Shown: positions 10,871-24,479 of the stretch, piece after piece
How the letters are laid out: every line of letters begins with the position of its first letter
Position numbering within the stretch: the stretch's first letter is position 1
Assembly: GCA_019634955.1 (NCBI GenBank)
Contig: JAHCAK010000009.1
Coordinates: 1-64,000, forward strand
Direction: 5' to 3'
Length of the DNA: 64,000 bases
From: Burkholderiales bacterium
GTDB taxonomy: Bacteria; Pseudomonadota; Gammaproteobacteria; Burkholderiales; Usitatibacteraceae
The notes under the pieces: model-generated
The model's input: only the letters and a program-made list of their open reading frames with translations
Told to the model about the DNA's origin: nothing
Databases searched by the model: none
Made by a program: the position numbers and the translations under genes

Positions 10871-13800
10871 TCAGCGCCCGCAGACGAGTGCCGAACTGCG
10901 CCCCGTGACCTCGAAGCGGCAGCCGTTGCCGGAGAGCGCCACGCGGTGCGGGCTGCCCTCGGCGTTGGTCGAGAACCGCAGCTCGCCGCTCCTCGCCCCC
11001 GGGATGCTCGGCAGGAACCCCACGTCGATGCGGCAAGACTGCGACGGCGCAAGTGTCCCTGTGCAGCCGCTCGCGGTCACGCGGAAGTCGCCGGTGGCCT
11101 CCATGAGCGGGCCGAAGACGAGATCGGCGGAGCCGGCGTTCGTGACCGTCACGAAGAGCGTGGAGCCGACGCCCGCGAGCCCGTTGCCGAAGGCAAGCGA
11201 GGAAGCCGAGAGCTGCACGCGAGGCGCCGGCACCGGCACGCCGTTGCCGGAGAGCGCCACGGCGAAGGGCGCCGTGGCGCCGTCGACCTCGAACAGCACC
11301 TGGCCCCCGCGCGTGCCCACCGCCGTCGGCGAGAACGAGGCGAGGAAGGCGCAGGACTCGCCGGGCCGGACGTCGGCGCAGGTTCCGGACACCGCGAAGT
11401 CGCCCGTCGTGGTGATCCGCGAGACCGAGGCGACCGCGGAGCCCACGTTGGTGACGGTGAACGGCCGGGCCGCGCTCGTGGTGCCCACGATCTGGTCGCC
11501 GAACGAGAGCGTCGACGGAATCGCCGCGAGGCGTCCGACGGGCGCGGCCGTGGCCGAGCCGGTGAGGCGAAGGAAGGCGGCACCGGCCGGCGAGTTCGTC
11601 ATGATCCGCACGTCGGCCGCGAAGCTGCCGGCCGACGGCGGGGCGAAGACCGCGGTGATCGTGCAGCTCGCGCCCGTGGCGAGCGAGGGCCCGCAGGTGT
11701 GGGTCATGGTGAAGCCCGTGCCCACGACCTCCACCGCGAGGATGGCGAGCGGCGCCGAGCCGCTGTTCGAGAGCGTGGCCGAGAGCGGCGCGCTCACCTG
11801 CCCGGAGGCCGTCGACGGGAACGCGAGCGTCGCGGGAGACAGGGTGGCGTTCGGGGAGGCTGCGGCCACGCCGTCGCCCTCGAGGACCACGGTGGCCGAA
11901 GGCATGCCCGGGTCGTTCGACGCGATCGCGAGGCTCCCGGTGCGCATGCCCGGCAGGATCGGCGTGAAGGTGACCGTGATGCCGCAGGTTGCGAGCGGCG
12001 CGAGCGGCGAGAGCGAGGTGCAATCGGAGGCCGCGGCGAAGTCCCCGCTGGCGGACACGCCGGAGATCGCGAGCGGCGCCGTGCCGGCATTGGAGACCGT
12101 CACCGGCTGCGCGAGCGAGGTCGTGCCCACCGTCTGGCCCGGGAAGAAGAGCGCCGAGGTCGACAGCGAGATGGCCGGCACCGGCACGGCGGTGCCCTGC
12201 CCCGTCAGGTTGAGCACGGCGTTGCCGGCGTCGCTCACGATGGTGAAGGAGCCGTTTCTCGTGCCCGTGGCCGTCGGCGTGAAGACGAGGGTCGCGGTGC
12301 ACGCGCTCAGCGGGTTCGGCGGCGCAGGCAGCGAGGCGCCGCAGGTGGTGGACGACTGCGAGAAGTCGCCGGCGAGCGCGAACGGCCCGGAGAACGCGAG
12401 CGGCGCATTGCCGGTGTTCGAGACGGTCACGGTTTGCGGCGCCGACGGCGCGCCCACGGTGCTCGACCCGAAGTCGAGCGGGCCGGGCGGCGACGGCACG
12501 AGCGTGAGCACGCCCGCGGGCGCGGTGGTCACCGTGAGCGTCACCGGAGAGATCGCGGGCGCCGCGTTCCCCACCGGCGCGGAGAACACCGTGCCGAGGA
12601 TCGCGTCGGCGGCGATGGTGGCGGGGTACGAGCCCGGCGTCGGACTCGTCACGTCGACCTGCACGTCGCAGGCTCCACCCGTCGGGATCGTGAACCCCGT
12701 CACCGAGATCGTCCCCGTGCCGGGCGAGGCGGCAACCGACCCCGCGCAGGACGCGCCTGCTACCACGGCATTGGCCGGATTGGCGACCACGACGCCGGCA
12801 GGAAGCGCGTACGTGAACGAGGGGCTCGCGAAGGCACCGAGGTTCGGGTTGCCCACGTTCAGGTCGAAGGTCGAGGATACGCCGGGCGCCACGGTGCCTG
12901 GCGTGAATGTGATGGCGGTGGGCAGCGGCGTGGCCCCGCCCACCGTGAGCGTGCCGCTTGCCGGGAGGGTCGACACGCCGGCGGCGATCGTCTCGGCCGA
13001 GGTGACGCCCCCGGCCGGGATCGTGTTCACCAGCGCGCCCACCTGCGTGCCGATCACGGCCACGCTCACGGAGCAGGTGGAGGCCGTCGTCGCCTTGCCG
13101 CGGGCGGACGGCGGCCCCAGCCCGGCGGGAACGGTGCCGCCGGCGAGCACGAGGCTCGTCGCGCCGGGGGGCGCCGTGACGGTGCCGCCGCAGGTGTTGG
13201 CGATCGCCGGAGTGGATGCGACCTGCAGGCCGGCCGGGAAGCTGTCGGTGAATCCGAGGTCCGTGAGCGGGAAGTCGTTCAGGTTCGAAACCGTCACCGT
13301 GAGGGTCGACGGCGCGCCGACCGCCGCGGAGGGCGGCGCGAAGGCCACCGCCACGTCGGGCGGCAGCGTCGCCACGCCCAGCCCCGTGAGGTTGATCACG
13401 AGCGTTCCGGCCGTCGTGGACACCGTGAGCGTGCCGTTGAGCGGACCGGCGGCCGACGGCTGGAAGGCGACCGTGACGAGGCAGCACGCCTGCCCGGAAA
13501 GGGGCGCGGCGAGCGGGCAGTCCGTCGTCAACACGAACTCCGGCGACGAGACGTCGATGCTCGTGATGTCCAGCGTGGCCGTCCCGCCGCCGGTGTTGCC
13601 GAGGGAGATCTCGACGGGCGCGCTCGTCGAGCCGACCACGGTGGGCGCGAAGGTCACGGTGCCGGAGGGCGCCGCCTCGATCGCCGCGGGCGTGGCCGCG
13701 ACGGTGTTGCCGTACACGTAGAGGTTGCCGTACTGCGTGGGCTGGCCCTCCGTTCCCTGGACCGTCAGCCAGGCGAGGTTCCACGGGTCGAGGAAGACGC

Positions 13801-15559
13801 TGGCACGGGAGTAATGGACGATGAACGTGCAGTTCGCCCCGGCGCCCACCTGCACGGCGCAGGTGCCCGGGTCCACCGTGACTTCGAGGTTGTCGCTCAA
13901 GAAGGCGAGTCCGGTCGGCGTGGGCGCGTCGCCCACGTTGGTGGCGACGACGGCAACCTGCACGGGCGTGTCCTTGAGGCCCGGCGGGAAGTTCACCGTG
14001 TCCGGGGTGAACTGCAGCCTCGCTCCCGGCACGATGCCGGTGCCGTACAGGTCGACGTAGGCGTAGGTGTTGCTGGTGGGCTCGACGACATAGAAGTAGT
14101 CGGAAGCCGATCCGCCGCCGGAAGGCGAGTACTGCACGTCCACGGTGCACGTGCCGGGCACGCCCGCGCCGGGCGACGCGGGCACCGTGCCGCTGAGGCA
14201 CGTGCCCCCGGTCTGGGTGAAATCGGAGGAGAGCGACGAGACGGAGATCGAATACGGAACCGGGTCGAAGTTCTCCAGCACGAAGCTCTGGTTCGGCGTC
14301 GACCCCACCGGCACGTCACCGAAATCGTGCGAGGACGGGTTGAAGGCGAGGTTGGGCATCAGCGTGACCGCCACCGGCAGGAATGCGGGCACGGCGTTCG
14401 CCGAGATCTCCAGCGATTCGTTGTAGGTGCCGGCCGCGAAACCGCTCGCGTCGACGTGCACCGGCACATCGCAGGTCGCCTGCGGCAGCAGCGGCGAGGC
14501 GGCGACGCAGTCGCTGAAATCCGCCACGTACGGCGGCGGGGCCACGAAGTTCGACAGCACGAGCGGCACGATGTCGAGGTTCGTGACGGTGACGACGTGG
14601 GACGAGGAGACCTGCCCCACCGGCAGGTAGCCGAAGTTCACGCTGGATGGCGTGAAGGCCAGCGCCCCTCCGCTGCCGATGCCCGCTCCCGTGAGGCGCA
14701 CCCACTCCGAATCGTTGTTGCTGCCGTCCGTGAAGTTCACGTAGAGCGAGACGTTCGCGTAGAGGCCGATGGACAAGGGCGTGAAGGTGACGGCGAGGTC
14801 GCACGCGGCGCCCACGGGAAGTGTGAGCGGGAAGCTCGTGCCGTATGGCGCGCAGTTCGCGCCCGGCACCGCCGTGAAGGCCGACGACCCGCTGCCGAAG
14901 ATGCTGACGCCGGACACCGTGAGCGGCAGGTTGCCCGCGTTGGCCACCCCCAGGGGCAGCGAGACGGGGGCCGGCGGCACGGCCGCGGTCGAGCCGAAAT
15001 CGAGGGTGGACGCCGAGACGGTGAGCTGGCTCGCGCCGATGGTCCCCTCCACGGGCCAGGACGAGATCGGCGCCGCGGGGTCGTTGCTGGCGATGTCGAT
15101 CGTCCCGCTCCAGGTCTGGCCGGTGCCCCCGTAGGCGTAGAAGGTGGCGTCGACCAGGCAGCTGCCGCCGGGCGGGATGGCGGCGCCCACGCAGCCGTTC
15201 GTGTCGATCACGCCGAAGAGCGCGGGGCAATCGCACGGGGGATTGGAGACCGTGATCGCGGAAACCACGAGCGTGCCCGTGCCCGTGTTCTGGATCGCGA
15301 ACGGGACCGGCGCGCTGACCGTCTCGCGCAGCGTGGCCGGGAAGGTCACCGGCGCGGGCGTGACCACGAGGTTCGGCGCGGGCAGCGCGCAGACCCCCGC
15401 CTTCGCCCCGGGCAGGCGCACGCCGAGCACCTTGGAGATCGGCTTGGCGGCCGCGGCCCGCGCGGGGGCCGCCTGCGCGGGCATGGGGGAAAGGACGATC
15501 GCGGCGATCGTCACGATCGCCGCGCCTGCGAGTCTGGCAACGGGGTGTGCGCCGTTCAT
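10871..15559 (-). CDS. Giant secreted choice-of-anchor-D (ASH-repeat) protein, 1562 aa
   Basis: Signal peptide about 1-30 (hydrophobic AAIVTIAAIVLSPMPAQA, cleavage after AQA). The rest is about ten ASH/HYDIN-like Ig-fold repeats, each starting with a pattern like ASTLDFGSTAAVPPAPVSL, holding a DFS..C..L...C core and ending near LTGxG. Two DUF11/DUF7933-like segments sit in the middle (for example SPSFTYALPAGVVVANPA). The last ~107 residues closely resemble those of the neighbouring 1279-aa protein and end in GNGCRFEVTGRSSALVC, a two-cysteine tail. Many repeats carry paired cysteines, fitting an oxidising extracytoplasmic location. AGGAG precedes the ATG. Ligand and function are unknown; surface display or a structural or adhesive role is inference. 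Confidence 0.88.
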   Translation of the reverse strand: MNGAHPVARLAGAAIVTIAAIVLSPMPAQAAPARAAAAKPISKVLGVRLPGAKAGVCALPAPNLVVTPAPVTFPATLRETVSAPVPFAIQNTGTGTLVVSAITVSNPPCDCPALFGVIDTNGCVGAAIPPGGSCLVDATFYAYGGTGQTWSGTIDIASNDPAAPISSWPVEGTIGASQLTVSASTLDFGSTAAVPPAPVSLPLGVANAGNLPLTVSGVSIFGSGSSAFTAVPGANCAPYGTSFPLTLPVGAACDLAVTFTPLSIGLYANVSLYVNFTDGSNNDSEWVRLTGAGIGSGGALAFTPSSVNFGYLPVGQVSSSHVVTVTNLDIVPLVLSNFVAPPPYVADFSDCVAASPLLPQATCDVPVHVDASGFAAGTYNESLEISANAVPAFLPVAVTLMPNLAFNPSSHDFGDVPVGSTPNQSFVLENFDPVPYSISVSSLSSDFTQTGGTCLSGTVPASPGAGVPGTCTVDVQYSPSGGGSASDYFYVVEPTSNTYAYVDLYGTGIVPGARLQFTPDTVNFPPGLKDTPVQVAVVATNVGDAPTPTGLAFLSDNLEVTVDPGTCAVQVGAGANCTFIVHYSRASVFLDPWNLAWLTVQGTEGQPTQYGNLYVYGNTVAATPAAIEAAPSGTVTFAPTVVGSTSAPVEISLGNTGGGTATLDITSIDVSSPEFVLTTDCPLAAPLSGQACCLVTVAFQPSAAGPLNGTLTVSTTAGTLVINLTGLGVATLPPDVAVAFAPPSAAVGAPSTLTVTVSNLNDFPLTDLGFTDSFPAGLQVASTPAIANTCGGTVTAPPGATSLVLAGGTVPAGLGPPSARGKATTASTCSVSVAVIGTQVGALVNTIPAGGVTSAETIAAGVSTLPASGTLTVGGATPLPTAITFTPGTVAPGVSSTFDLNVGNPNLGAFASPSFTYALPAGVVVANPANAVVAGASCAGSVAASPGTGTISVTGFTIPTGGACDVQVDVTSPTPGSYPATIAADAILGTVFSAPVGNAAPAISPVTLTVTTAPAGVLTLVPSPPGPLDFGSSTVGAPSAPQTVTVSNTGNAPLAFSGPFALAGDFSQSSTTCGASLPAPPNPLSACTATLVFTPTATGTRNGSFTIVSDAGNAVLNLTGQGTAVPVPAISLSTSALFFPGQTVGTTSLAQPVTVSNAGTAPLAISGVSASGDFAAASDCTSLSPLAPLATCGITVTFTPILPGMRTGSLAIASNDPGMPSATVVLEGDGVAAASPNATLSPATLAFPSTASGQVSAPLSATLSNSGSAPLAILAVEVVGTGFTMTHTCGPSLATGASCTITAVFAPPSAGSFAADVRIMTNSPAGAAFLRLTGSATAAPVGRLAAIPSTLSFGDQIVGTTSAARPFTVTNVGSAVASVSRITTTGDFAVSGTCADVRPGESCAFLASFSPTAVGTRGGQVLFEVDGATAPFAVALSGNGVPVPAPRVQLSASSLAFGNGLAGVGSTLFVTVTNAGSADLVFGPLMEATGDFRVTASGCTGTLAPSQSCRIDVGFLPSIPGARSGELRFSTNAEGSPHRVALSGNGCRFEVTGRSSALVCGR

Positions 15560-15630
15560 GGCCTTGCTCCTGGCGACGGTTCGTCCGTCGTCCTAGTCCC
15601 TTGCGTCGCTGCCGCTTTCCCGATCCTGCG

Positions 15631-18600
15631 CTACTGGCAGATGAGCGACTGCGTCCGGTTGAAGAAAGTGAACCGGCACCCGGTGCCCGCGAGATCCACG
15701 AACTGCGTGCCGTTGGAGGCGTTGCTCGTGACGGTCATCCGGCCGAAACGGGCCCCCGGAATGGTCGGCAGGAACCCCACGTCGATCCGGCAGGTTCCAT
15801 CGGGATCGACCGTCGTGCCGCAGGTGGTCGTGTGCACGAACTCCCCGGTGAGCGTGATGCTGCCGAGCGCAAGGGGCGCGCCGCCCTTGTTGCGAACGGT
15901 CACCGACTGCACCTGCGCGCCGGCGCCGACCAGCCGGTTGCCGAAGGTGAGGCTGGATGCCGACAGCTCGATCACCGGCGCCTGGATGGGCGCGCCGCTG
16001 CCGGAGAGGTTCACCGTGAGCGGCGAGTTGGAGGCGTTGCTCGCGACCGACACCGACCCGGGCCGCGGCCCGGTGGCCGTGGGCGTGAAGGTGACGCTGA
16101 TCGTGCAGGTGTCCCCGGAGGCGAGCGAGGCGCAGTTGTTGGTCTGCGCGTAGTCGCCGCTCGCGGTGACGCCCGACACCGCGACCGTCGCGGAGCCCGC
16201 GTTGGAGACGACGATGGATTGCGCCGCGGTCGTCGTGCCGATCTCGCGCGTGCCGAAGTCGAGCGTGGCCGGCGTGGCGGCCAGCGTGCCCACGGCCAGC
16301 GCCGTGCCCTCGCCCGTGAGGCCGATGAGCGTCGGGCTCGCCGGCGCGTTGCTGATGAGGCGCAGCGTGGCGATAACGTTGCCCGCCGAACCGGGCGCGA
16401 AGGTGATCGAGATGGTGCAGGTGCCCGACGGCGACACCGGTGCCGAGGTGCACGTCTGCGAGGTCACCGCGTAGCCGCTGCCCACGATCTCGACGGCGGA
16501 GACCGAGAGCGGGCCGCCGCCCACGTTGGAGACCGTGACGGTCACCGTCGGGGAGACGCCGCCCACCTGCGTCGGCGGGAAGCTCACCGAGGTCGGCACG
16601 CTGATGGTCGGGACCGGGGGCAATGTCGCCGTGCCGGTGAGCGGGATGAAGTGCGGGCTGCCGGCCGCGTCGTCGAAGACCTTGAGGAAGCCGGACCGCG
16701 TGCCGGGCGCGACCGGGCTGAAGGTGACCGAGATGCCGCAGGAAGCCGATGGCGCCAGGCTCGACGGGCACGCGTTCGATTGCGCGAAATCGCCCTCGGT
16801 GATGATCGAGGCGATGGCGAGCGGCGCCGTCCCCGCGTTCGAGAGCGTGACCGCCTGCGCCGCCGACGTCGTGCCGACCGTCTGCGTCGGGAAGGTGAGC
16901 GCCGACGGGAGGAGCGACGGGATGGCCACGGGCACCGCCACGCCGTTGCCGGTGAGCGGCAGGATGTTCGGCGAGGTCGCGGCATTGGTGGCGATCGTGA
17001 TGTCCGCGCTCCGCGTTCCCGTCGCGGTCGGCGTGAAGTTGACGGCGAACGCGCAGTTGGCGCCCGGCGGCAGGCCGGGCAAGCCGACCGGGCAGGTGTT
17101 CGTCTGCGTGAAGTCGCCCGGTGTGAGGGAGATGCCGCTGAAGACGAGATTCGCCGTGCCGACGTTCTGGAGCAGCGCCGACTGGGGCGGCGCGGGGGTG
17201 CCCACCGTGACGCTGCCGAAGTTGAGGCCGCCCGGCGTGAGCTGCACGGCAGGCGCGGCGGGCGCATTGACCGTGAGCGTGGCCGTGTTGGACGCGGCGT
17301 TCGAGACCGGCACGCCGAGGACGTTGCCGACGATGGCGCCGGCGGGCATGGTCACGGGGTAGCTGCCGACGGTGCCCGAGCTCACGTCGAGGGAGAAGGT
17401 GCAGGTGGCGCCGGTCATCACCTGCAGGCCGTTGACCGTGAACGAGGTCGCGCCGGGCGACGGTGTCGCGAACGAGCCGAAGCAGGACGGGCCTGCCGGG
17501 TTCGCCTCGTTGGGCGACGCCGCCACGACCAGGTTCGCGGGCAGGTTGTAGGTGAAGTTCGGGTTCGCGAACGTCGCCCCGTTCGGGTTCGTGATCGACA
17601 GGCTCAGCGTGGAGGGCCCGTTTTGCAGGACCGAGATCGGGTTGAAGGTCCAGTTGACCGTCGGCGGCGTGACGCTGCCGGAGCCCTGCAGGTTGATCAC
17701 CGTGCCGTTGGCGGGGGACTGGGCGTCGATCAGCGTGAGCGTGGCGTTGCGCGCGCCTGAATTCTGCGGGGTGAAGACGAGGTTCATCGTGCAGCTGCTG
17801 GCCGGCGACAGGGAAAGCGTCGAAGGCCCGACGTTGGGCGCGCCGGTGGGGTCCGACCCGATCCCGCACCAGTGCGCGCTGCTGGGCGGAGGCCCGCCGG
17901 TGGTGTCGCGGTAGTCGCCGAGGGAGAGCGCGATCGCGTCCAGGACCAGGGTGCCCGGCCCCGGGTTGTTGATGGTGAGCGGCGTCACCGCGCTCGACCC
18001 GCCCAGCGGCACCGTGCCGAAGTTGAGCGAGGTCGTCGACGGCACCATGTCGGGCGTGAGGACGGCCCCGTAGAAGTTCGTCGTCTGGTTGAACGCCGTG
18101 AAGGTCCGCGTGATGTTCTTGTAGATGCCCGGAACCGTCGCCGTGCAGCTCGCGTTGCCCGCCCCCGTCGTGAACAGGGCGCACGAGGCGAAATACTGCT
18201 GGCCCTGGTCGATGCCGAGCAGCGTGTTGCTGTTGTCGAAGAACTCGGTCATCACGTTCTGGTTGGCCGAGAAGCCCGTGACCGAGTAGTTGACGCTCGT
18301 GTTGCCGCCCGCGTAGGTCACGACGACCGTGTCGGTGGGCGTCGAGACGAAGGAGTCGATGCCGGTGAGCGAGTTGAGGAAGATGTCGTTGCCCGACACC
18401 ATCGTGGGGAAGCACCCGAACGAAACGCCGGACTGGCCGTTGTAGGCGATGAGGTTGCCCTCTGACGCGCCCTGCCCGCCGATGGCGCCGGCCGAGTTCT
18501 GGATGAAGATCCCGTGGCCCTGGTTTCCCGCGGGCGTGGCCCCGTCCTTCGCGGCGCCGACGATGTTGCCGAGGATGGAGACGTTGCTGCCGATGGACGA

Positions 18601-19470
18601 GATGCCGTTGCCGACGGCGCAGCCGATCACGTTGCGGTCGGCGGGAAGGATCCCGCCGATCATGTTGCCGAACCCGCCGTCGCCGACGCCGACTTTCGAT
18701 GTTCCCGCCGTCACCGAGCAGCCCGTGCCGGCCGCTCCCACCCCGATGAAGTTGCCGGCGACGGTGCTGCCGCTCCCGGAAACGTGGACGGCGTTGCCGA
18801 AGCTCGGCCAGTTCACGAGGGCCAGGCCGCGCACCGCCATGTTGCTGGAAAGGCTCCCGAGATCGAGGAGGTTTCCCCCGGTCATGCCCGAGCCGTCGAT
18901 CGCCACCTGAATGACGGCGCTCGAACCGTCACGCGCCGCCGCGATCGAGTTGGCCGAAGCGCCCGGCTGCGTGTAGCCGTCGATCACCGTGTCCGTGCAG
19001 GCAAGGCTGAACCCGGCGCTCGTCGCGATCGTGTGCGGACCCGCGCCGCCAATGTTGAAGTGGATCGCGAAGGTATCCGGACCGTACGGATTGCAGTTCG
19101 TGTTGACGTACTGGAGAGCCTGCCTCAGCGTCATCGGAGTCTGCGTGGGGCTCGCGGGCAGGCCGCCCGTGTCTGCCGTGCTGTCCACCACGAGCGTGAT
19201 GAGCGCCTTGTTTCGCGTGCGCGGCGAGCGCACGCCAATGGCCGATGGGTCGTTCAGGAGTTCGTCGGAGAACGCCTGGGCGAGGAGCATCGGCTCGCGG
19301 CCGACGTCGCGGGCGACAATCACGGGCACCGGCTCCGCGGCAAACACCATGGGTACCGGGGCGAGCAGGCTGGCGGCGAAGCCGATGCCCGCCATGGCCG
19401 CGACGACGGGCCTTGGGCAGGCAGCGCCAAAACGGACGGGGAGGGATTCGGATCCAGTTGCGTTCTTCAT
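15631..19470 (-). CDS. Secreted parallel-beta-helix plus ASH-repeat protein, 1279 aa
   Basis: After a long signal region (hydrophobic core about 25-42, cleavage near MVFAA/EP) comes a propeptide-like stretch and then a right-handed beta-helix domain of about 300 residues. It opens with TPMTLRQALQYVNTNC, as in CSLREA/choice-of-anchor proteins, and continues with coils such as GNFIGVGAAGTG and GNGISSIGSNVSILGN. ASH repeats follow (VPSTTSLNFGTVPLGGSSAV and later ones), interrupted by a DUF7933-like segment. The C-terminus ends in GTGCRFTFFNRTQSLIC, matching the downstream 1562-aa paralogue. Its ATG overlaps the glycosyltransferase stop by 4 nt, so translation is coupled. Probably an outer-surface or secreted protein; the substrate is unknown. 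Confidence 0.87.
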   Translation of the reverse strand: MKNATGSESLPVRFGAACPRPVVAAMAGIGFAASLLAPVPMVFAAEPVPVIVARDVGREPMLLAQAFSDELLNDPSAIGVRSPRTRNKALITLVVDSTADTGGLPASPTQTPMTLRQALQYVNTNCNPYGPDTFAIHFNIGGAGPHTIATSAGFSLACTDTVIDGYTQPGASANSIAAARDGSSAVIQVAIDGSGMTGGNLLDLGSLSSNMAVRGLALVNWPSFGNAVHVSGSGSTVAGNFIGVGAAGTGCSVTAGTSKVGVGDGGFGNMIGGILPADRNVIGCAVGNGISSIGSNVSILGNIVGAAKDGATPAGNQGHGIFIQNSAGAIGGQGASEGNLIAYNGQSGVSFGCFPTMVSGNDIFLNSLTGIDSFVSTPTDTVVVTYAGGNTSVNYSVTGFSANQNVMTEFFDNSNTLLGIDQGQQYFASCALFTTGAGNASCTATVPGIYKNITRTFTAFNQTTNFYGAVLTPDMVPSTTSLNFGTVPLGGSSAVTPLTINNPGPGTLVLDAIALSLGDYRDTTGGPPPSSAHWCGIGSDPTGAPNVGPSTLSLSPASSCTMNLVFTPQNSGARNATLTLIDAQSPANGTVINLQGSGSVTPPTVNWTFNPISVLQNGPSTLSLSITNPNGATFANPNFTYNLPANLVVAASPNEANPAGPSCFGSFATPSPGATSFTVNGLQVMTGATCTFSLDVSSGTVGSYPVTMPAGAIVGNVLGVPVSNAASNTATLTVNAPAAPAVQLTPGGLNFGSVTVGTPAPPQSALLQNVGTANLVFSGISLTPGDFTQTNTCPVGLPGLPPGANCAFAVNFTPTATGTRSADITIATNAATSPNILPLTGNGVAVPVAIPSLLPSALTFPTQTVGTTSAAQAVTLSNAGTAPLAIASIITEGDFAQSNACPSSLAPSASCGISVTFSPVAPGTRSGFLKVFDDAAGSPHFIPLTGTATLPPVPTISVPTSVSFPPTQVGGVSPTVTVTVSNVGGGPLSVSAVEIVGSGYAVTSQTCTSAPVSPSGTCTISITFAPGSAGNVIATLRLISNAPASPTLIGLTGEGTALAVGTLAATPATLDFGTREIGTTTAAQSIVVSNAGSATVAVSGVTASGDYAQTNNCASLASGDTCTISVTFTPTATGPRPGSVSVASNASNSPLTVNLSGSGAPIQAPVIELSASSLTFGNRLVGAGAQVQSVTVRNKGGAPLALGSITLTGEFVHTTTCGTTVDPDGTCRIDVGFLPTIPGARFGRMTVTSNASNGTQFVDLAGTGCRFTFFNRTQSLICQ

Positions 19471-20687
19471 CGCACCACCTTCAGGGGAACCGCGGACGGC
19501 ATCACGGCGGCCTCGCAGGCCGCCACCGCGCGGGCCAGCGCGCGGGATCCGACGTCGGGGGGTTGGTCTGCTTCGATGCGTCGGGCGGCTTCGGTGAAGG
19601 CCGCCTCTTCGAGAATGCGCTTCAGGGCCGTGGCCACGCGCGCCGGCCGCTCGTCGCGGCCCGCCGCGAGGCCGGCGCCAAGCTCGGTCACCTTCATGGC
19701 CGTGAGCTGCTGCTCACCGGAGCCCGGCAGCAGCAAGAGCGGCCGGCCGGCGAGGAGCGCGGCCAGCACGAGGCTGTGCCCGCCGTAGGTGACGACGGCC
19801 CGGCATGCGCCCAGCGCCGTGGGAAGGTCGAAGGGCTGCGGCGAGACCAGCAGGTCGGGCGTCGAGATCCTCGCGCACCACGCGGGCGTCGAGTCGGGAA
19901 CGTACGCCCAGACCCGGCGGCCGCAGCCGCGCAGCGCCTGCAGCGCCGCCTCGGTGTGGGGATGATCCATGCGCAGCGAGGCGAACACTTCGGGAAGGGC
20001 GCCCTCGACGGCGGGCAGTCGCGAGGCGGGCATGGGGCCGATGTACTCGTGAGTCCCGGGCCTGCCGGGGAACGGGTCGATCGCGGGGATCGTCGCGAGA
20101 AGCGTGCCACCGCCTTCCAGCGCCGCGCCCAGTTCGGCCAACGGCGGCCGTCCCAGGGTGCGCAGCACCGCGTTCGCCGTCCTGAGCGCGTGCGTCTCGG
20201 CGCGGTCGAGCCGTTCGTCGATGCCTGGAGACCAAGGCTGCGCGAGCGGCGGCCGTCCCCCGCGGTGCGGCGGGCAGTTGAACCCCGTTCCAAGCCGCAG
20301 CGCCGGAACGGCGGCGGCGTGGCTTGCGAGCATGAGCACCGGCGCGAAATTGGCGATCACCAGGTCGGGCTGGAACGACCGGAACAGCGCGCGCCACCCG
20401 CCTACCAGCCCCAGCAGCGTCTCCGCGTGGGCGAAGCCCGCTCCGAGACAGACCTCGGTGTGGTTGGCGGGGCTCGCCGAGATGCCCGAGAACTCGTTCT
20501 GGCACACCGGCGCCTGGAAGACGGGCCATCCGGTGGCGGCGAGTTCCGTCGCCGCCACGGCCGTGTTGCGCTGCGCGACGCCGACTTCCCACCCGCGGCC
20601 GGCGAGCTCGCGAAGCAGGGAGAGGTACGGCCGCAGGTGGCCGTTGCCTTCCCCGAGCTCCCAGCCGAAGAGGACGCGCTTCGCCAT
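19467..20687 (-). CDS. GT-B glycosyltransferase, UGT/MurG-like
   Basis: A 406-residue glycosyltransferase of the GT1-like GT-B fold. The N-terminal acceptor domain opens with LFGWELGEGNGHLRPYLSLL, the glycine-rich loop of MurG/MGT enzymes. The C-terminal nucleotide-sugar domain has VTYGGHSLVLAALLAGRPLL followed by LPGSGEQQLTAMKVTELGAG, corresponding to the HGG...P...DQ..NA..... signature. The expected D-Q pair is E-Q here. There is no signal peptide, so it works in the cytoplasm. It is embedded between the FecR-domain gene (30 nt upstream) and the beta-helix/ASH gene (4-nt overlap), which suggests a role tied to these exported proteins or to a surface glycan they bind. Donor and acceptor are unknown. 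Confidence 0.85.
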   Translation of the reverse strand: MAKRVLFGWELGEGNGHLRPYLSLLRELAGRGWEVGVAQRNTAVAATELAATGWPVFQAPVCQNEFSGISASPANHTEVCLGAGFAHAETLLGLVGGWRALFRSFQPDLVIANFAPVLMLASHAAAVPALRLGTGFNCPPHRGGRPPLAQPWSPGIDERLDRAETHALRTANAVLRTLGRPPLAELGAALEGGGTLLATIPAIDPFPGRPGTHEYIGPMPASRLPAVEGALPEVFASLRMDHPHTEAALQALRGCGRRVWAYVPDSTPAWCARISTPDLLVSPQPFDLPTALGACRAVVTYGGHSLVLAALLAGRPLLLLPGSGEQQLTAMKVTELGAGLAAGRDERPARVATALKRILEEAAFTEAARRIEADQPPDVGSRALARAVAACEAAVMPSAVPLKVVR

Positions 20688-20717
20688 GGATGGCCCCGCC
20701 GCCGCCTCGCGCCCCGG

Positions 20718-23087
20718 TCAGCCGCCCGCCCGGCGGAAGGCCGCCGCGCCGGAAGCGCCGTTCAGGTTGTACATCATCCCGGCGCCCTGCCCGCTTCGCC
20801 CGGCGAAGAACCCGTCGACGGAGCCGACGGGGTTCGGGCAGGTGGGCTGGCAGGTGATGTTCAGGAGCTGCGGCACCGGCAGGCCGGGCGGCACCACGCC
20901 GCGGAAGGCCGAGAAGTACTGGTCGCGGTAGATGGGCACGCTGTTGGCCGAGGCGTTGATCGACTGCCCGGCGATCGTGAGGTTCACGCCGAGATCCACC
21001 GTACGGCGGCTGAAGTCGGCCGCGAGCGTGGCGGAGTTGAGCGTGCCCACGTTGCCCAGCGTGTCCGTCGGGCTCGTGTGGCCGATGAGGTCGTAGGTCG
21101 CCGTCCCCGTGAGGGGGAGCGCCACCGGGCCGTTCTGCACGCCGGAGAACACGTAGTGCAGGCTGCCGCGATCCAGCGCCAGCGGCTGCTGCTGGCCGCC
21201 GCCGGTGACCAGCGCGACGCCACCCGACCAGCGGCCCCACACGAGGCCTGTCTCGGGGTCGATGCCGGATTGCGCCACCGAGGCGCTGCCGATGGCGTAG
21301 GACTGGTGCCCGCCGTAGATCTGGAACGGGGCAGCGAAGGCGGTCACGCGCCCTTGCGCGTCGGCCGTGACCTCGTCGGGGCGGTTGGCCGTGCCGAAGT
21401 TGCGCACCAGCGCCGAGCCGAGGATGCCCATCGGGTCCGAGACGAGGCCGTCGCGGTACTGCGCCGCCATGTTCTGCGTCGGGCCCTGGAAGCCGATCAC
21501 GCCGTTCACCGTGTTGTGGTTGCCCGACGTGCCGGTCTGGTCGGTGAAGCTGTAGCCCACCGCCGCGCCCTGGAGCCCCGAGCCGACGAAGCTGCCCTCG
21601 ATGCTCCCGTAGAGCGAGCTGTTCGTCTGCGAGCTCTGGCCGTTGCCGTTGGTGATGCGCAGCCGGTCCGAGGTCGAGGCGAAGAACGAGCCGAAGGTGA
21701 TGGGCACGTCCGGCGCCGTGAGCTGCCACGAGCCGCCCGCATTGCCGCCCGCGGCCGGCATGTTGACGCCGATGGTCGCGGTGAGCGTGCGGTTGGAGAA
21801 GTTCACGTCGAGCTGGGCGCCGGTGAGCGTGCCCGCCGTGTTGTTCTGGTTCGTGGGCGAGGTGTGCACGACCGCGCCGTAGAGCGCCGTGCCGGTGAGC
21901 ACGTCGGAGAGGTAGGCCGGGAAGCCCGAGCCCGAGATGATCCAGTGCGCACTGCCCGGAACGAGGCCGCCCGTGCCGGGGCCGAAGTAGCCGAAGCTCG
22001 CGCCTTCCCAGCGGCCCAGGGTGTAGTTGAGGCCGCCCGAGGAGTAGGTCTGGACGTCGCGCGCCACCCCGCCGTCCAGCGAAGGCTCCAGCGCCACGCT
22101 CAGGCCCGAGTACATGCGGTAGGAGCGGAAGTTGCCCGCTTCCCGCGTGATGTCGCCGCTGAGCGCCTGCCCGGCGAGCGTCGAGCCGCCGGCGATGACG
22201 ATGTCGTTCAACCCCAGCGGCTCGCCGCCGATGAGGTTGCCGGAGGCGTCCGTGATCGAGAAACCGAGGCCGTTGTTGCCGACGGGGGTGGTGGTGGACG
22301 TGCCCTGCACCGTCGTCGAGCCGCTGCCGTCGTTCGGGCCGAAGTTGCGCGTCTCGTCGCCGCCGCCGCCGGCGCCACCCGGGGTCTTCGCCGCGCCCGT
22401 CGGGTTGGTGGCCGCGTCCGCGATGAACTGCGGCGTCGGGATGTAGCGCACGTCGCCGCGCCCCGTGACGAGCACCGTCTGGCCGGGGCCGGTCACGAGC
22501 GTCTGCGCGCCGCCCTGCTGCGCCGGCAGGCCCGGCGCGCCGAAGTCGCCGAAGGTGACGGCGTGGCTGCCCTCGATGGTGTGGTTCACCGTGATGTCGC
22601 ACCCGCCGCCGGAGGCCTCGACCTTGGCCGGGTCGCAGTCGGCCGCGGTGCCGGCGAAGAGCACGTTGCCGGAGCCGCGGATGCCCACGGTCGCGACCTT
22701 GGTCTTCATCACGAAGCGGTCACGGTTGCGCGAGGCGATGAGGCCGGTGAAGGTGCGCAGCGTCCCGCGGATGAGGTTCAGCAGCGCGCCCTGGTCGGAA
22801 TCGGGCCGGTCGGCGTACTGCTCGATCTGGAACTGCGTGTTGGGTCGCAGCGAGATCTTGGCCTGGTCGACCATGGTGAGCTGGGCCATGCCGCGCGTGC
22901 CGGTGACGATCGCGTCGCCCGGGTTCACGGGCGTGCCCTTGGTCACGGCGACGCGCTGGCCGTCCTTCCGCTGGACGTTCACCTCGCCGGTGACGAAGGT
23001 GAAGGAACCGCTCTGGGCGAAGGCCGGGCCGGCCGAGACGACGCCGGCCAGGAGGAGCAGGGAAGCGAGCTTCTTGCGTTGCAGCAT
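20718..23087 (-). CDS. FecR-domain protein with two TbpB-like barrel modules
   Basis: A 789-residue exported protein with a non-lipoprotein signal peptide (cleavage after GPAFA, residue 24). A FecR domain spans about 28-215, including LRPNTQFQIEQY and KVATVGIRGSGNVLF. A Gly/Thr linker (230-270) leads to two tandem homologous modules, about 275-545 and 580-789. Each has a GxxHxxxSG strand, an LTGTAxYxxxxHTSPT strand, a DFSxRT/NFSNRT strand and the closing GS(I/V)(E/D)GxFxG...QGA strand. The last resembles the barrel hallmark of TbpB/hemophilin-type type XI secretion cargo. GGGAG precedes the ATG. It lies 12 nt after the Slam-like gene, its probable exporter. The ligand is unknown. Confidence 0.82.
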   Translation of the reverse strand: MLQRKKLASLLLLAGVVSAGPAFAQSGSFTFVTGEVNVQRKDGQRVAVTKGTPVNPGDAIVTGTRGMAQLTMVDQAKISLRPNTQFQIEQYADRPDSDQGALLNLIRGTLRTFTGLIASRNRDRFVMKTKVATVGIRGSGNVLFAGTAADCDPAKVEASGGGCDITVNHTIEGSHAVTFGDFGAPGLPAQQGGAQTLVTGPGQTVLVTGRGDVRYIPTPQFIADAATNPTGAAKTPGGAGGGGDETRNFGPNDGSGSTTVQGTSTTTPVGNNGLGFSITDASGNLIGGEPLGLNDIVIAGGSTLAGQALSGDITREAGNFRSYRMYSGLSVALEPSLDGGVARDVQTYSSGGLNYTLGRWEGASFGYFGPGTGGLVPGSAHWIISGSGFPAYLSDVLTGTALYGAVVHTSPTNQNNTAGTLTGAQLDVNFSNRTLTATIGVNMPAAGGNAGGSWQLTAPDVPITFGSFFASTSDRLRITNGNGQSSQTNSSLYGSIEGSFVGSGLQGAAVGYSFTDQTGTSGNHNTVNGVIGFQGPTQNMAAQYRDGLVSDPMGILGSALVRNFGTANRPDEVTADAQGRVTAFAAPFQIYGGHQSYAIGSASVAQSGIDPETGLVWGRWSGGVALVTGGGQQQPLALDRGSLHYVFSGVQNGPVALPLTGTATYDLIGHTSPTDTLGNVGTLNSATLAADFSRRTVDLGVNLTIAGQSINASANSVPIYRDQYFSAFRGVVPPGLPVPQLLNITCQPTCPNPVGSVDGFFAGRSGQGAGMMYNLNGASGAAAFRRAGG

Positions 23088-23099
23088 GGCCGGTTCTCC

Positions 23100-24479
23100 C
23101 TAGTTGATCTCGCAACGCACGGCCGTCGAGACCTCGCTGCGGTTGAAGTCGTAGATCGAGATGTTGGAGTCGTTGCGCGTGTAGACGTACTGGGCGCGCA
23201 CCGCGCACGTCTTCCGGAACTGCCAGTTGACCCCCACCATGAACTCCGCGAACTTGTCCTTGCCCTTCTCCACCTCGGTGGCGCGCGCGAAGGCGTCCTT
23301 GTCCTGGCGGTAGATGAAGCCCAGGCCGTTGAACACGTTCAGCTTCGGCGTGAGGGAGTACTGGAAGTAGCTGCGCAGGCCGGCGAGCGTCTTGCTCTTG
23401 TCGGTGACGCCGTCGGCCATCTTGTTCTTCGCCCGGTCTTCGCTCGCCATCGCCGCGAGGTAGAGGATGGGCACGCCCTTCGTCTCGAACGAGCGCAGCC
23501 ACGAGGCCACGACGAAGAGCTGGTCGAAGTCCTCGATGTCGTTCTCCGGGAAACGCACCTGGCCGTACTGCACGCCGAGGCCCACCTGCGTCTTCGGGTC
23601 GAGGTTGTACTTCCAGTCGCCCTGCACGTTGGCGATGCGCCGGTCGTTGGTCGGCTTGGGCTCGCCGGGGGCGTCGCCTTCCTGGTTGAAGGCCTGGTAG
23701 CTGGCGAGCAGGCGCCACTGCGTCGGGCCGTCGTTGAGCGCCGTGCCGGCGCGCAGGTCGCCGCCCACCGAGTTGAAGTCGCTCTCGCCGTCGTAGCCGC
23801 GCCCCTTGGCCTCGCCGCCGGCGAAGAGGCTCCAGCCGCGCGACAGCGGCATCGAGTACTCCATCGCGCCGGCGATCGTGCCGAAACCGGCCTTGCGCTT
23901 GATCGAGTTGCCGGTGGGCTCGATGCCGATGATGCCGAAGGACTGCTGCGCCGCGGCGCCGAAGTCCGTGGGCACGCCCGTGATGTTCGTGTCGTAGCCC
24001 AGGCCCAGCTCCGCGTAGCCCATCCAGCCCGGCGTGGTCTGCCGCTTGCGGGCCTGGATCGCCTCGAGGTAGCGGTTGATGGTCTGCTGGGCTGCCGGGG
24101 GCGGGTTGGAATCCGCCAGTTGCTTGAAGGACGCCTCGGCGAGGTCGAAGGAGCCGGCCGCGAAGTAGGCGCGGGCGAGGTCCATCTGGGCGCCCGCGTG
24201 GTTCGCGTTCAGGGCGAGGACGCGCTCGAAGGCGACGATGGCGTCGTCGATCTTGCCGCTGTCCAGGGAGGCCACGCCGAGCAGGTAGTCGTAGTCGATG
24301 TTCCCGGCGAGCCTGGCCTCATGCTTGATGAGTTCCATGTAGGCCTGCTTCGGATTCGACTCGTTCAGGAGTCGTCGGGCTTTCTCGATGTCCTCGGGAT
24401 TGGCCAGCGCGGGAAGAGTCGCTCCCCCCGCGAGGGCCACGGCGACGAGGGCATTCGTCCAGCGTGCGCGTCGGTCCAT
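23100..24479 (-). CDS. TPR plus outer-membrane beta-barrel protein, Slam-like (DUF560)
   Basis: A 459-residue protein with a signal peptide (VALAGGATLPALA), TPR-like helices about residues 25-130 (LLGVASLDSGKIDDAIVAFE, LNANHAGAQMDLARAYFAAG) and then a long barrel of alternating amphipathic strands. The barrel begins around GWMGYAELGLGYDTNITGVP and ends with YVYTRNDSNISIYDFNRSEV. This TPR-then-barrel design and the final SN...Y.. strand pattern match surface lipoprotein assembly modulators (type XI secretion). I preferred the ATG at 24479, with GAGAG 7 nt upstream, to a GTG four codons earlier. It is the first gene of the run ending at 10871. A generic TPR/barrel porin is the alternative. Confidence 0.78.
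   Translation of the reverse strand: MDRRARWTNALVAVALAGGATLPALANPEDIEKARRLLNESNPKQAYMELIKHEARLAGNIDYDYLLGVASLDSGKIDDAIVAFERVLALNANHAGAQMDLARAYFAAGSFDLAEASFKQLADSNPPPAAQQTINRYLEAIQARKRQTTPGWMGYAELGLGYDTNITGVPTDFGAAAQQSFGIIGIEPTGNSIKRKAGFGTIAGAMEYSMPLSRGWSLFAGGEAKGRGYDGESDFNSVGGDLRAGTALNDGPTQWRLLASYQAFNQEGDAPGEPKPTNDRRIANVQGDWKYNLDPKTQVGLGVQYGQVRFPENDIEDFDQLFVVASWLRSFETKGVPILYLAAMASEDRAKNKMADGVTDKSKTLAGLRSYFQYSLTPKLNVFNGLGFIYRQDKDAFARATEVEKGKDKFAEFMVGVNWQFRKTCAVRAQYVYTRNDSNISIYDFNRSEVSTAVRCEIN

What the first reader, a model, noticed from the sequence alone, without database searches (positions are those of the whole stretch)
10871..24479. Five-gene secretion/surface operon: Slam-like translocon, FecR/TbpB-like cargo, glycosyltransferase and two giant ASH proteins
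Seen: five same-strand genes with gaps of 12 and 30 nt, a 4-nt overlap and a 71-nt gap, a terminator-like hairpin at the end and a divergent promoter region at the start. Known: TPR-plus-barrel Slam/DUF560 proteins (type XI secretion) export TbpB-like barrel cargo encoded next door. Inference: the first gene exports the second, and the glycosyltransferase and ASH proteins belong to the same surface system. I know of no described system combining a Slam-like exporter with a FecR domain and ASH repeats.
Basis: partly seen in the sequence, partly recalled or inferred. Interest (0 to 1): 0.78.

Follow-up and report, generated by a model that had tools for sequence, protein, structure and literature searches.

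The report
Slam-type exporter with FecR-headed barrel cargo
Two neighbouring genes appear to form a self-contained surface-protein delivery pair, an outer-membrane gate and its passenger, that recurs in environmental betaproteobacteria; the passenger begins with a FecR domain and usually ends in one to four small barrels.

Summary
The solid unit is the first two. The 459-aa protein is a type XI secretion (T11SS, Slam/DUF560) outer-membrane protein: TPR domain plus a predicted 14-strand barrel, homologous along its barrel to SlipAM proteins of genomes with TbpB-type cargo. The 789-aa protein is its probable cargo: signal-like N-terminus, FecR domain, disordered linker, two lobes folded like TbpB, NHBA, fHbp, HpuA and hemophilin. 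In 80 related loci a FecR gene directly follows the Slam-like gene in 78; two run off the contig. 58 of 66 partners carry 1-4 barrels. In 120 genomes of the order, 31 of 32 with such a barrel also have the Slam-like gene; 47 of 51 barrel hits lie within 6 kb of one. Pfam's TbpB model sees 5 of 58 barrels. Glycosyltransferase and ASH genes are accessories, chiefly of one bacterial family. Ten paper searches and two T11SS surveys (main text) showed no FecR-headed cargo. Verdict: new T11SS variant, widespread, untested. The role of the FecR head is open; retention or sensing is inference, and my control did not favour retention.

The parts
23100..24479 (-). Slam-like T11SS outer-membrane protein, 459 aa
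   Evidence: SlipAM 23.4 bits over cut-off 22; AlphaFold2 pLDDT 92.9; hhalign to SlipAM proteins, barrel part prob 99.8
24036..24398 (-). TPR domain of the Slam-like protein (residues 28-148)
   Evidence: TPR_19 E 1.4e-10; helices in the model
23106..24029 (-). 14-strand beta-barrel of the Slam-like protein (residues 151-458)
   Evidence: 14 strands in the model; best solved matches CymA Z 21.9 and OmpG Z 20.9
20718..23087 (-). FecR-headed cargo protein, 789 aa
   Evidence: FecR 29.6 bits over cut-off 24; two barrel domains
22410..23009 (-). FecR domain (residues 27-226 by the model's strands; Pfam match 58-139)
   Evidence: PupR cell-surface signalling domain Z 15.4, rmsd 2.9, 140 aligned, model 55-231; Pfam FecR
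22230..22406 (-). disordered linker (residues 228-286)
   Evidence: pLDDT under 50 over 228-286
21474..22220 (-). first handle+barrel lobe (residues 290-538)
   Evidence: NHBA C-domain Z 12.1, fHbp Z 11.1, HpuA Z 10.8
20721..21464 (-). second, C-terminal handle+barrel lobe (residues 542-789)
   Evidence: TbpB C-lobe Z 11.2, hemophilin Z 10.6; slam_lipo E 0.0012, 19.1 bits, cut-off 80
19467..20687 (-). accessory glycosyltransferase, 406 aa (UDP-glycosyltransferase/EryCIII type)
   Evidence: EryCIII-like_C E 1.6e-12; present in 5 of 17 loci of the family
15631..19470 (-). accessory ASH (choice-of-anchor D) repeat protein 1, 1279 aa
   Evidence: choice_anch_D 311.2 bits
10871..15559 (-). accessory ASH (choice-of-anchor D) repeat protein 2, 1562 aa
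   Evidence: choice_anch_D 423.5 bits
15634..15687 (-). C-terminal GxGCR...C tail of ASH protein 1
   Evidence: similar tails in other ASH proteins of the family
10874..10930 (-). C-terminal GxGCR...C tail of ASH protein 2
   Evidence: similar tails in other ASH proteins of the family

Best explanation
The first two genes are a T11SS exporter-cargo pair. The cargo is made with a Sec-type signal peptide, crosses the inner membrane and is held unfolded in the periplasm (the Skp step is known for TbpB, not tested here). Its C-terminal TbpB-like barrel is recognised by the Slam-like protein, whose TPR domain faces the periplasm and whose 14-strand barrel is the way through the outer membrane. The barrel lobes fold outside. 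The cargo shows no lipid anchor, so it is either released or held by its N-terminal FecR domain; at about even odds I lean to the FecR domain staying on the periplasmic side as a stop or sensor, with the 60-residue disordered linker in the pore. Shown: gene pairing, domain make-up, profile and fold matches. Inferred: the transport itself, recognition by the last barrel, the place of the FecR domain.
For: FecR gene directly downstream on the same strand in 77 of 80 loci by gene calls, plus L140 by open frames; the other two, L110 and L135, end at the contig edge; median gap 23 nt. The 80 are the best of 230 relatives found with one peptide motif, so I repeated the test with profiles: in 120 genomes of the order 46 have the Slam-like profile, 32 the barrel profile, 31 both (Fisher p 3e-16); 47 of 51 barrel hits lie within 6 kb of a Slam hit, same strand at 36 of 36 Slam loci concerned, downstream at 33 of 36. 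Of 66 partners not cut by a contig edge 58 carry 1-4 barrels, the last within 25 residues of the C-terminus in 57; L114 is a 59th with filters off. Barrel profile against a profile of 25 TbpB_B_D domains: score 40.2, prob 81.5, against at most 14.5 for 30 shuffles, reversal and three unrelated profiles. Slam barrel against 12 SlipAM proteins: prob 99.8, E 3e-28, 286 columns; 30 shuffles prob at most 0.4. The only NCBIfam family that the barrels match at E 0.01 is 'Slam-dependent surface lipoprotein', 9 of 58 including the window's last barrel; it matches 5 of 33 partners at E 0.001 and is not listed for 12 FecR controls. Solved structures nearest the cargo model: TbpB entries in Foldseek's first 20; NHBA, TbpB C-lobe, fHbp, HpuA, LbpB and hemophilin lobe by lobe.
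Against: No transport experiment exists. SlipAM score of the window protein is barely over the cut-off and 12 of 35 homologues do not reach E 0.01. PF01298 matches only 5 of 58 barrels at E 0.1 and not the window protein; slam_lipo stays far below its cut-off (19.1 vs 80 bits). At three of 36 Slam loci the barrel lies upstream, and 4 of 51 barrel hits have no Slam hit on their contig. 25 of 61 Slam hits had no barrel hit nearby at E 1e-6. Seven of 66 partners show no convincing barrel even with filters off (one, L120, is split and has its barrels in the next frame), so the FecR head is the more constant feature. That head was found with my own profile; Pfam's FecR model matches 33 of 33 partners in one set, but of eight giant or short partners L086 has no match and L117 is below cut-off. 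For the FecR head as a retention device the control failed: FecR proteins taken away from Slam genes match the LapA retention model as often (10 of 12) as the cargo (29 of 33). Whole-chain TM-scores to TbpB are low (0.15-0.18 by query length).
Confidence: 0.82

Rival explanations
1. A sensor pair rather than an exporter pair: the FecR protein stays periplasmic, reads the state of the barrel protein and passes a signal inward, as FecR does for TonB-dependent transducers; the barrels are ligand-binding parts.
For: The FecR domain is the more constant part of the partner; five partners of 273-302 aa are FecR without barrel. Its fold is that of PupR's signalling domain, Z 15.4. CHASE2 and cyclase domains each occur in 6 of 115 neighbour proteins scanned.
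Against: Pfam shows no anti-sigma domain before the FecR domain of the window protein and the model only a signal-like helix; no sigma-factor family is among the 25 commonest of 115 neighbour proteins (142 families matched, only those 25 are shown); the barrels' nearest solved structures are surface proteins.
Confidence: 0.12
2. The TPR-barrel protein exports a polysaccharide, like BcsC, PgaA or PelB, and the neighbour is a matrix protein.
For: TPR plus barrel; BcsC tops Foldseek by E-value (4e-11) and PelBC is in the list.
Against: TM-scores to BcsC are low (0.43/0.36); VIA-align 2's list is led by CymA and OmpG (both 14-strand, recalled); no synthase among the five genes; the profile is homologous to SlipAM over 286 barrel columns.
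Confidence: 0.03
3. All five genes form one surface system: the glycosyltransferase decorates the cargo and the ASH proteins are further cargo or scaffold.
For: Spacing and strand; the order FecR, glycosyltransferase, ASH1, ASH2 recurs in the close relative G007 (L037, its Slam-like gene on another contig piece, L050); ASH-type gene after the pair in 13 of 17 loci of the family; GT41 glycosyltransferases beside some remote pairs: L058, L060, L061, L138, L142.
Against: No ASH hit in 64 loci outside the family with my five-sequence profile; pair without either in L039 and L043; ASH genes elsewhere in the same genome; the only barrel hits of the genome are the two of the FecR protein.
Confidence: 0.12

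Closest known systems
T11SS Slam/NilB outer-membrane proteins (DUF560, PF04575) with TbpB-, hemophilin- and fHbp-type cargo
   Same: TPR plus barrel, whole-barrel homology, neighbouring cargo with handle-and-barrel lobes
   Different: Cargo has an N-terminal FecR domain, no evident lipobox (1 of 77 partners has a crude match), barrels too diverged for PF01298 in 53 of 58
Sphingomonas and Psychrobacter multi-TbpBBD surface proteins predicted as T11SS cargo (PMC12282271, section 15 read)
   Same: Two to three handle-barrel copies in one cargo
   Different: Those begin with proline-threonine(-aspartate) repeats, not FecR; here one to four copies
Lysobacter sigma/FecR/TonB receptor/TbpB-like/Slam cluster (PMC11233812, passages seen)
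   Same: FecR and Slam-related genes in one cluster
   Different: There FecR is a separate regulator gene beside a sigma factor; here the FecR domain is part of the cargo
LapA/MpAFP retention module of type I secreted adhesins
   Same: Weak sequence match of the FecR part (27.6 bits, cut-off 50; MpAFP 5ix9 E 0.068, and Foldseek rank 36)
   Different: The same match to the LapA model is shown by FecR proteins away from Slam genes, so it is a general trait of FecR domains

Membership tests
T11SS outer-membrane protein (Slam/NilB, DUF560) | SlipAM model match over the curated cut-off | tested here: met
   23.4 bits vs 22; 23 of 35 homologues at E 0.01
T11SS outer-membrane protein (Slam/NilB, DUF560) | N-terminal TPR domain | tested here: met
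T11SS outer-membrane protein (Slam/NilB, DUF560) | C-terminal 14-strand barrel (number recalled for Slam, not from a call) | tested here: met
   14 strands, pLDDT 92.9
T11SS outer-membrane protein (Slam/NilB, DUF560) | whole-length homology to SlipAM proteins of genomes with TbpB-type cargo | tested here: met
   prob 100, 412 columns; barrel alone prob 99.8 (12 proteins, from the 17 SlipAM hits)
T11SS outer-membrane protein (Slam/NilB, DUF560) | translocates a cargo across the outer membrane | not testable with these tools
   needs a secretion assay
T11SS cargo | C-terminal TbpBBD/lipoprotein-C type beta-barrel fold | tested here: met
   TbpB C-lobe Z 11.2 over 542-789, NHBA Z 12.1 over 343-538; profile score 40.2 vs controls up to 14.5
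T11SS cargo | match to the current sequence models (PF01298, slam_lipo) over their cut-offs; a detection aid, not the fold itself | tested here: not met
   window protein has no PF01298 match at E 1; slam_lipo 19.1 vs 80 bits
T11SS cargo | encoded next to a T11SS outer-membrane protein | tested here: met
T11SS cargo | Sec signal peptide | tested here: inconclusive
   hydrophobic N-terminus and AFA-Q site by eye; no predictor was at hand
FecR anti-sigma regulator | cytoplasmic anti-sigma domain and membrane helix before the FecR domain | tested here: not met
   no such Pfam match; only a signal-like helix 6-17 before the first FecR strand at 27
FecR anti-sigma regulator | adjacent ECF sigma factor | tested here: inconclusive
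   none among the 25 commonest families of 115 neighbour proteins; rarer ones are not shown; the window's flanking genes were labelled by eye only
LapA-type retention adhesin | retention module over its cut-off | tested here: not met
   27.6 vs 50 bits; FecR controls match equally
TPR-barrel polysaccharide exporter (BcsC/PgaA/PelB) | synthase genes in the operon | tested here: not met
   none among the five genes; flanking genes labelled by eye only

The most novel reading that the evidence does not exclude
The FecR head is a periplasmic stop-and-sense module: the cargo is exported barrel first, jams in its own Slam-type pore at the disordered linker, and so is held at the surface without a lipid anchor while the FecR part reports to the periplasm. 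This would be a third way of placing T11SS cargo, next to lipidation and release, and perhaps a common one in betaproteobacteria.
Probability: 0.28. Interest if true: 0.78.

Novelty: new variant of a known kind. Interest (0 to 1): 0.6.

Why it matters
The T11SS survey of 2021 states that nine of its ten protein clusters, mostly from water and soil bacteria, contain no characterised member (PMC8406197, section 5 read), and the 2025 survey found known barrel domains rare beside one environmental cluster and raised the possibility of other targeting domains (PMC12282271, passages). Here a large environmental group turns out to have a nearly constant neighbour whose barrels are mostly too diverged for Pfam. 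That gives a cargo family and a profile (alignment A5) to look for more. Whether this group is one of the ten published clusters was not tested. FecR-named genes of this type could be mistaken for iron regulators in annotation (inference), also in Gallionella and Sideroxydans, which are among the loci.

Tried and rejected
Polysaccharide exporter: considered because BcsC and PelBC appear in Foldseek's list; rejected on the VIA-align 2 ranking and SlipAM homology. No Slam structure is listed or 70 (capped lists), so a direct comparison of folds was not made.

LapA-like retention: first looked promising (29 of 33 partners match; 5ix9), then a control with 12 FecR proteins away from Slam genes gave 10 of 12, so I keep it only as the novel case.

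Operon signals: promoter and terminator scans at chance level, hairpin z -1.55; no conclusion on transcription.

Barrel profile against PDB sequences found nothing at E 10. Paper searches, ten in all: FecR with DUF560, with 'type XI secretion' and with 'retention module' gave 0 papers each; FecR with TbpB 2, with Sideroxydans 3, with 'surface lipoprotein assembly' 1; of these six listings (five different papers) only the Lysobacter paper was opened (passages). Wider searches listed 20, 20, 20 and 10 papers; three were opened in part. Supplements could not be read. The library holds open-licence papers only.

Rows dropped: contig-end loci L032, L048, L049, L050 from the count of 17; 12 edge-cut partners from the 77, leaving 65 plus the window = 66, among which L079 is interrupted and L120 split; TbpB_B_D domains: 25 of 30 fetched loci used; SlipAM genomes: 12 of the 15 with TbpB_B_D hits searched, 12 of 17 hits used (L217 lost its frame); for, 115 of 137 same-strand neighbours, which themselves leave out genes over 800 or under 90 aa, edge genes and nearly all of the window's own clade. 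The 80 loci overlap with the 40 (for example L143 is the contig of L058), so the two sets are not independent; the 40 were picked after I had seen both hit lists. One search had two wrong-strand TbpB rows and no controls; one search replaced it. In one search the three highest of 20 shuffle scores were 19.1, 135 and 136; I did not trace the cause, without the bad row, with 30 other shuffles and reading probabilities, had none like it. In one search my script chose a wrong frame in many rows (the window's own L184 among them), so its 11 of 30 tails is a lower bound.
Full report
What is there. Pfam and NCBIfam confirm the labels: TPR plus SlipAM, FecR, a UDP-glycosyltransferase-type enzyme, and two proteins of ASH/choice-of-anchor D repeats. 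Promoter and terminator evidence is at chance level, so co-transcription rests on spacing alone.

The conserved unit is two genes. In relatives the 459-aa protein matches in 38 of 61 genomes (E 1e-3, weak TPR-only matches included) and the FecR protein in 45 of 61 (FecR-only matches included). I fetched 40 regions after seeing both lists; in the 38 where both genes are in view they are neighbours, L037 and L047 being contig pieces without the Slam-like gene and L063 having the FecR gene upstream. A motif scan of genome contigs gave 230 relatives, of which the best 80 were kept with flanks: the next gene on the same strand is a FecR protein in 77 by gene calling and in L140 by open frames; L110 and L135 end at the contig edge. 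Median gap is 23 nt. Because that scan used one peptide motif, I repeated the test with profiles in 120 genomes of the order: 46 with the Slam-like profile, 32 with the barrel profile, 31 with both; 47 of 51 barrel hits within 6 kb of a Slam hit, on the same strand at all 36 Slam loci concerned and downstream at 33. Exceptions: one genome with barrel but no Slam hit, three loci with the barrel upstream, four barrel hits without a Slam hit on their contig, and 25 of 61 Slam hits without a barrel hit at E 1e-6, of which at least three have a FecR neighbour at closer look (L057, L059, L069).

The exporter. AlphaFold2 on 82 sequences gives pLDDT 92.9: helical repeats at 28-148, then 14 strands from 151 to 458. 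The solved structures closest to the barrel are CymA and OmpG (Z 21.9 and 20.9), both 14-strand barrels as I recall. Its Pfam score is marginal, so I took SlipAM proteins from 12 of the 15 genomes in which one search found TbpB_B_D domains; all 12 have one. Profile comparison: prob 100 over 412 columns, and with the TPR part cut away still prob 99.8 over 286 columns, E 3e-28, while 30 column shuffles stayed at prob 0.4 or less.

The cargo. The model (pLDDT 78.6, 33 sequences) has a FecR domain, a disordered linker at 228-286 and two handle-plus-barrel lobes. Foldseek's first 20 matches are all from TbpB entries (whole-chain TM-scores are low, 0.15-0.18 by query length, with rmsd near 19-25, so the overall arrangement differs). 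Lobe by lobe, VIA-align 2 gives PupR's FecR-type domain (Z 15.4), NHBA (12.1), TbpB C-lobe (11.2), fHbp (11.1), HpuA (10.8), LbpB (10.7), hemophilin (10.6). The count of barrels per partner is 1 in 21, 2 in 19, 3 in 11, 4 in 7 and 0 in 8 of 66 proteins not cut by a contig edge, the last barrel ending within 25 residues of the C-terminus in 57 of 58; with filters off one of the 8, L114, has a barrel too, and L120 is split, with its barrels in the next frame. By sequence the barrels are at the edge of recognition: PF01298 in 5 of 58 at E 0.1, slam_lipo in 9 of 58 at E 0.01 and nothing else in NCBIfam, profile comparison with TbpB_B_D 40.2 against 14.5 or less in controls. A crude lipobox pattern occurs in 1 of 77 partners, inside the hydrophobic stretch, so the cargo looks like the soluble type.

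The accessories. In the window's family the next gene is visible in 17 loci, the window included: an ASH-type gene within three genes in 13, two of them weak (L031 by BLAST 27 per cent over 293; L042 by one repeat at 26.5 bits, cut-off 45), a glycosyltransferase in 5, the ABC transporter directly in 2, other genes in 2. Outside the family 0 of 64 loci have an ASH hit with my five-sequence profile, which is not very sensitive; L066, from another family and not among the 64, has an ASH2-like BLAST match (34 per cent over 297) in the gene upstream. GT41-type glycosyltransferases stand beside some remote pairs: L058, L060 and L061, L138 and L142, so glycosylation of the surface protein is a reasonable but untested idea.

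Mechanism. Best reading: Sec export, barrel recognition by the Slam-like protein, passage through its barrel, folding outside. The Skp-assisted passage of unfolded cargo is known for TbpB and Slam1 (PMC9090332, passages seen) and carried over by analogy. The FecR head is the more constant part of the partner, also in five short partners without barrels, so it probably matters. Retention in the periplasm would explain a cargo without lipid anchor, but the match to the LapA retention model is a general trait of FecR domains (29 of 33 partners; 10 of 12 controls).

Novelty. The main texts of two T11SS surveys contain the word FecR 0 times, and joint searches of FecR with DUF560 or type XI secretion gave no paper. 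Multi-barrel cargo is known; FecR-headed cargo with its own exporter is, as far as these searches reach, not described. I call it a new variant of a known kind.

Noticed in passing
10874-10930 and 15634-15687; also L186, L189, L190, L193, L202, L207: ASH (choice-of-anchor D) proteins of this bacterial family tend to end in a shared tail: GxGCR, 11-15 residues, C, 0-2 residues, with small departures in some, also in copies on other contigs or far from the Slam locus. It may be a disulfide-closed cap or a sorting tail.
   Followed up: partly
L124, L128, L133, L137, L146: Short FecR partners of 273-302 aa without a detectable barrel still sit directly behind the Slam-like gene.
   Followed up: partly
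L058:8352-10517, L060:9056-11245, L061:6183-8279, L138, L142: GT41 (O-GlcNAc-transferase type) glycosyltransferases next to remote Slam-FecR pairs.
   Followed up: no
neighbour set A6; L057:6772-9135: CHASE2 and cyclase domains in 6 of 115 neighbour proteins each, GAF in 8, T2SSE in 4, class-II cAMP phosphodiesterase in 4; in L057 a GAF-T2SSE protein follows the pair. A possible signalling link.
   Followed up: no
L042:6788-12727, L044:6313-13674, L045:5-1585: YVTN beta-propeller proteins stand in the place of, or fused to, ASH repeats in three genomes.
   Followed up: no
L035:4393-6738 (G005): The FecR cargo gene of one genome is interrupted by a stop.
   Followed up: no
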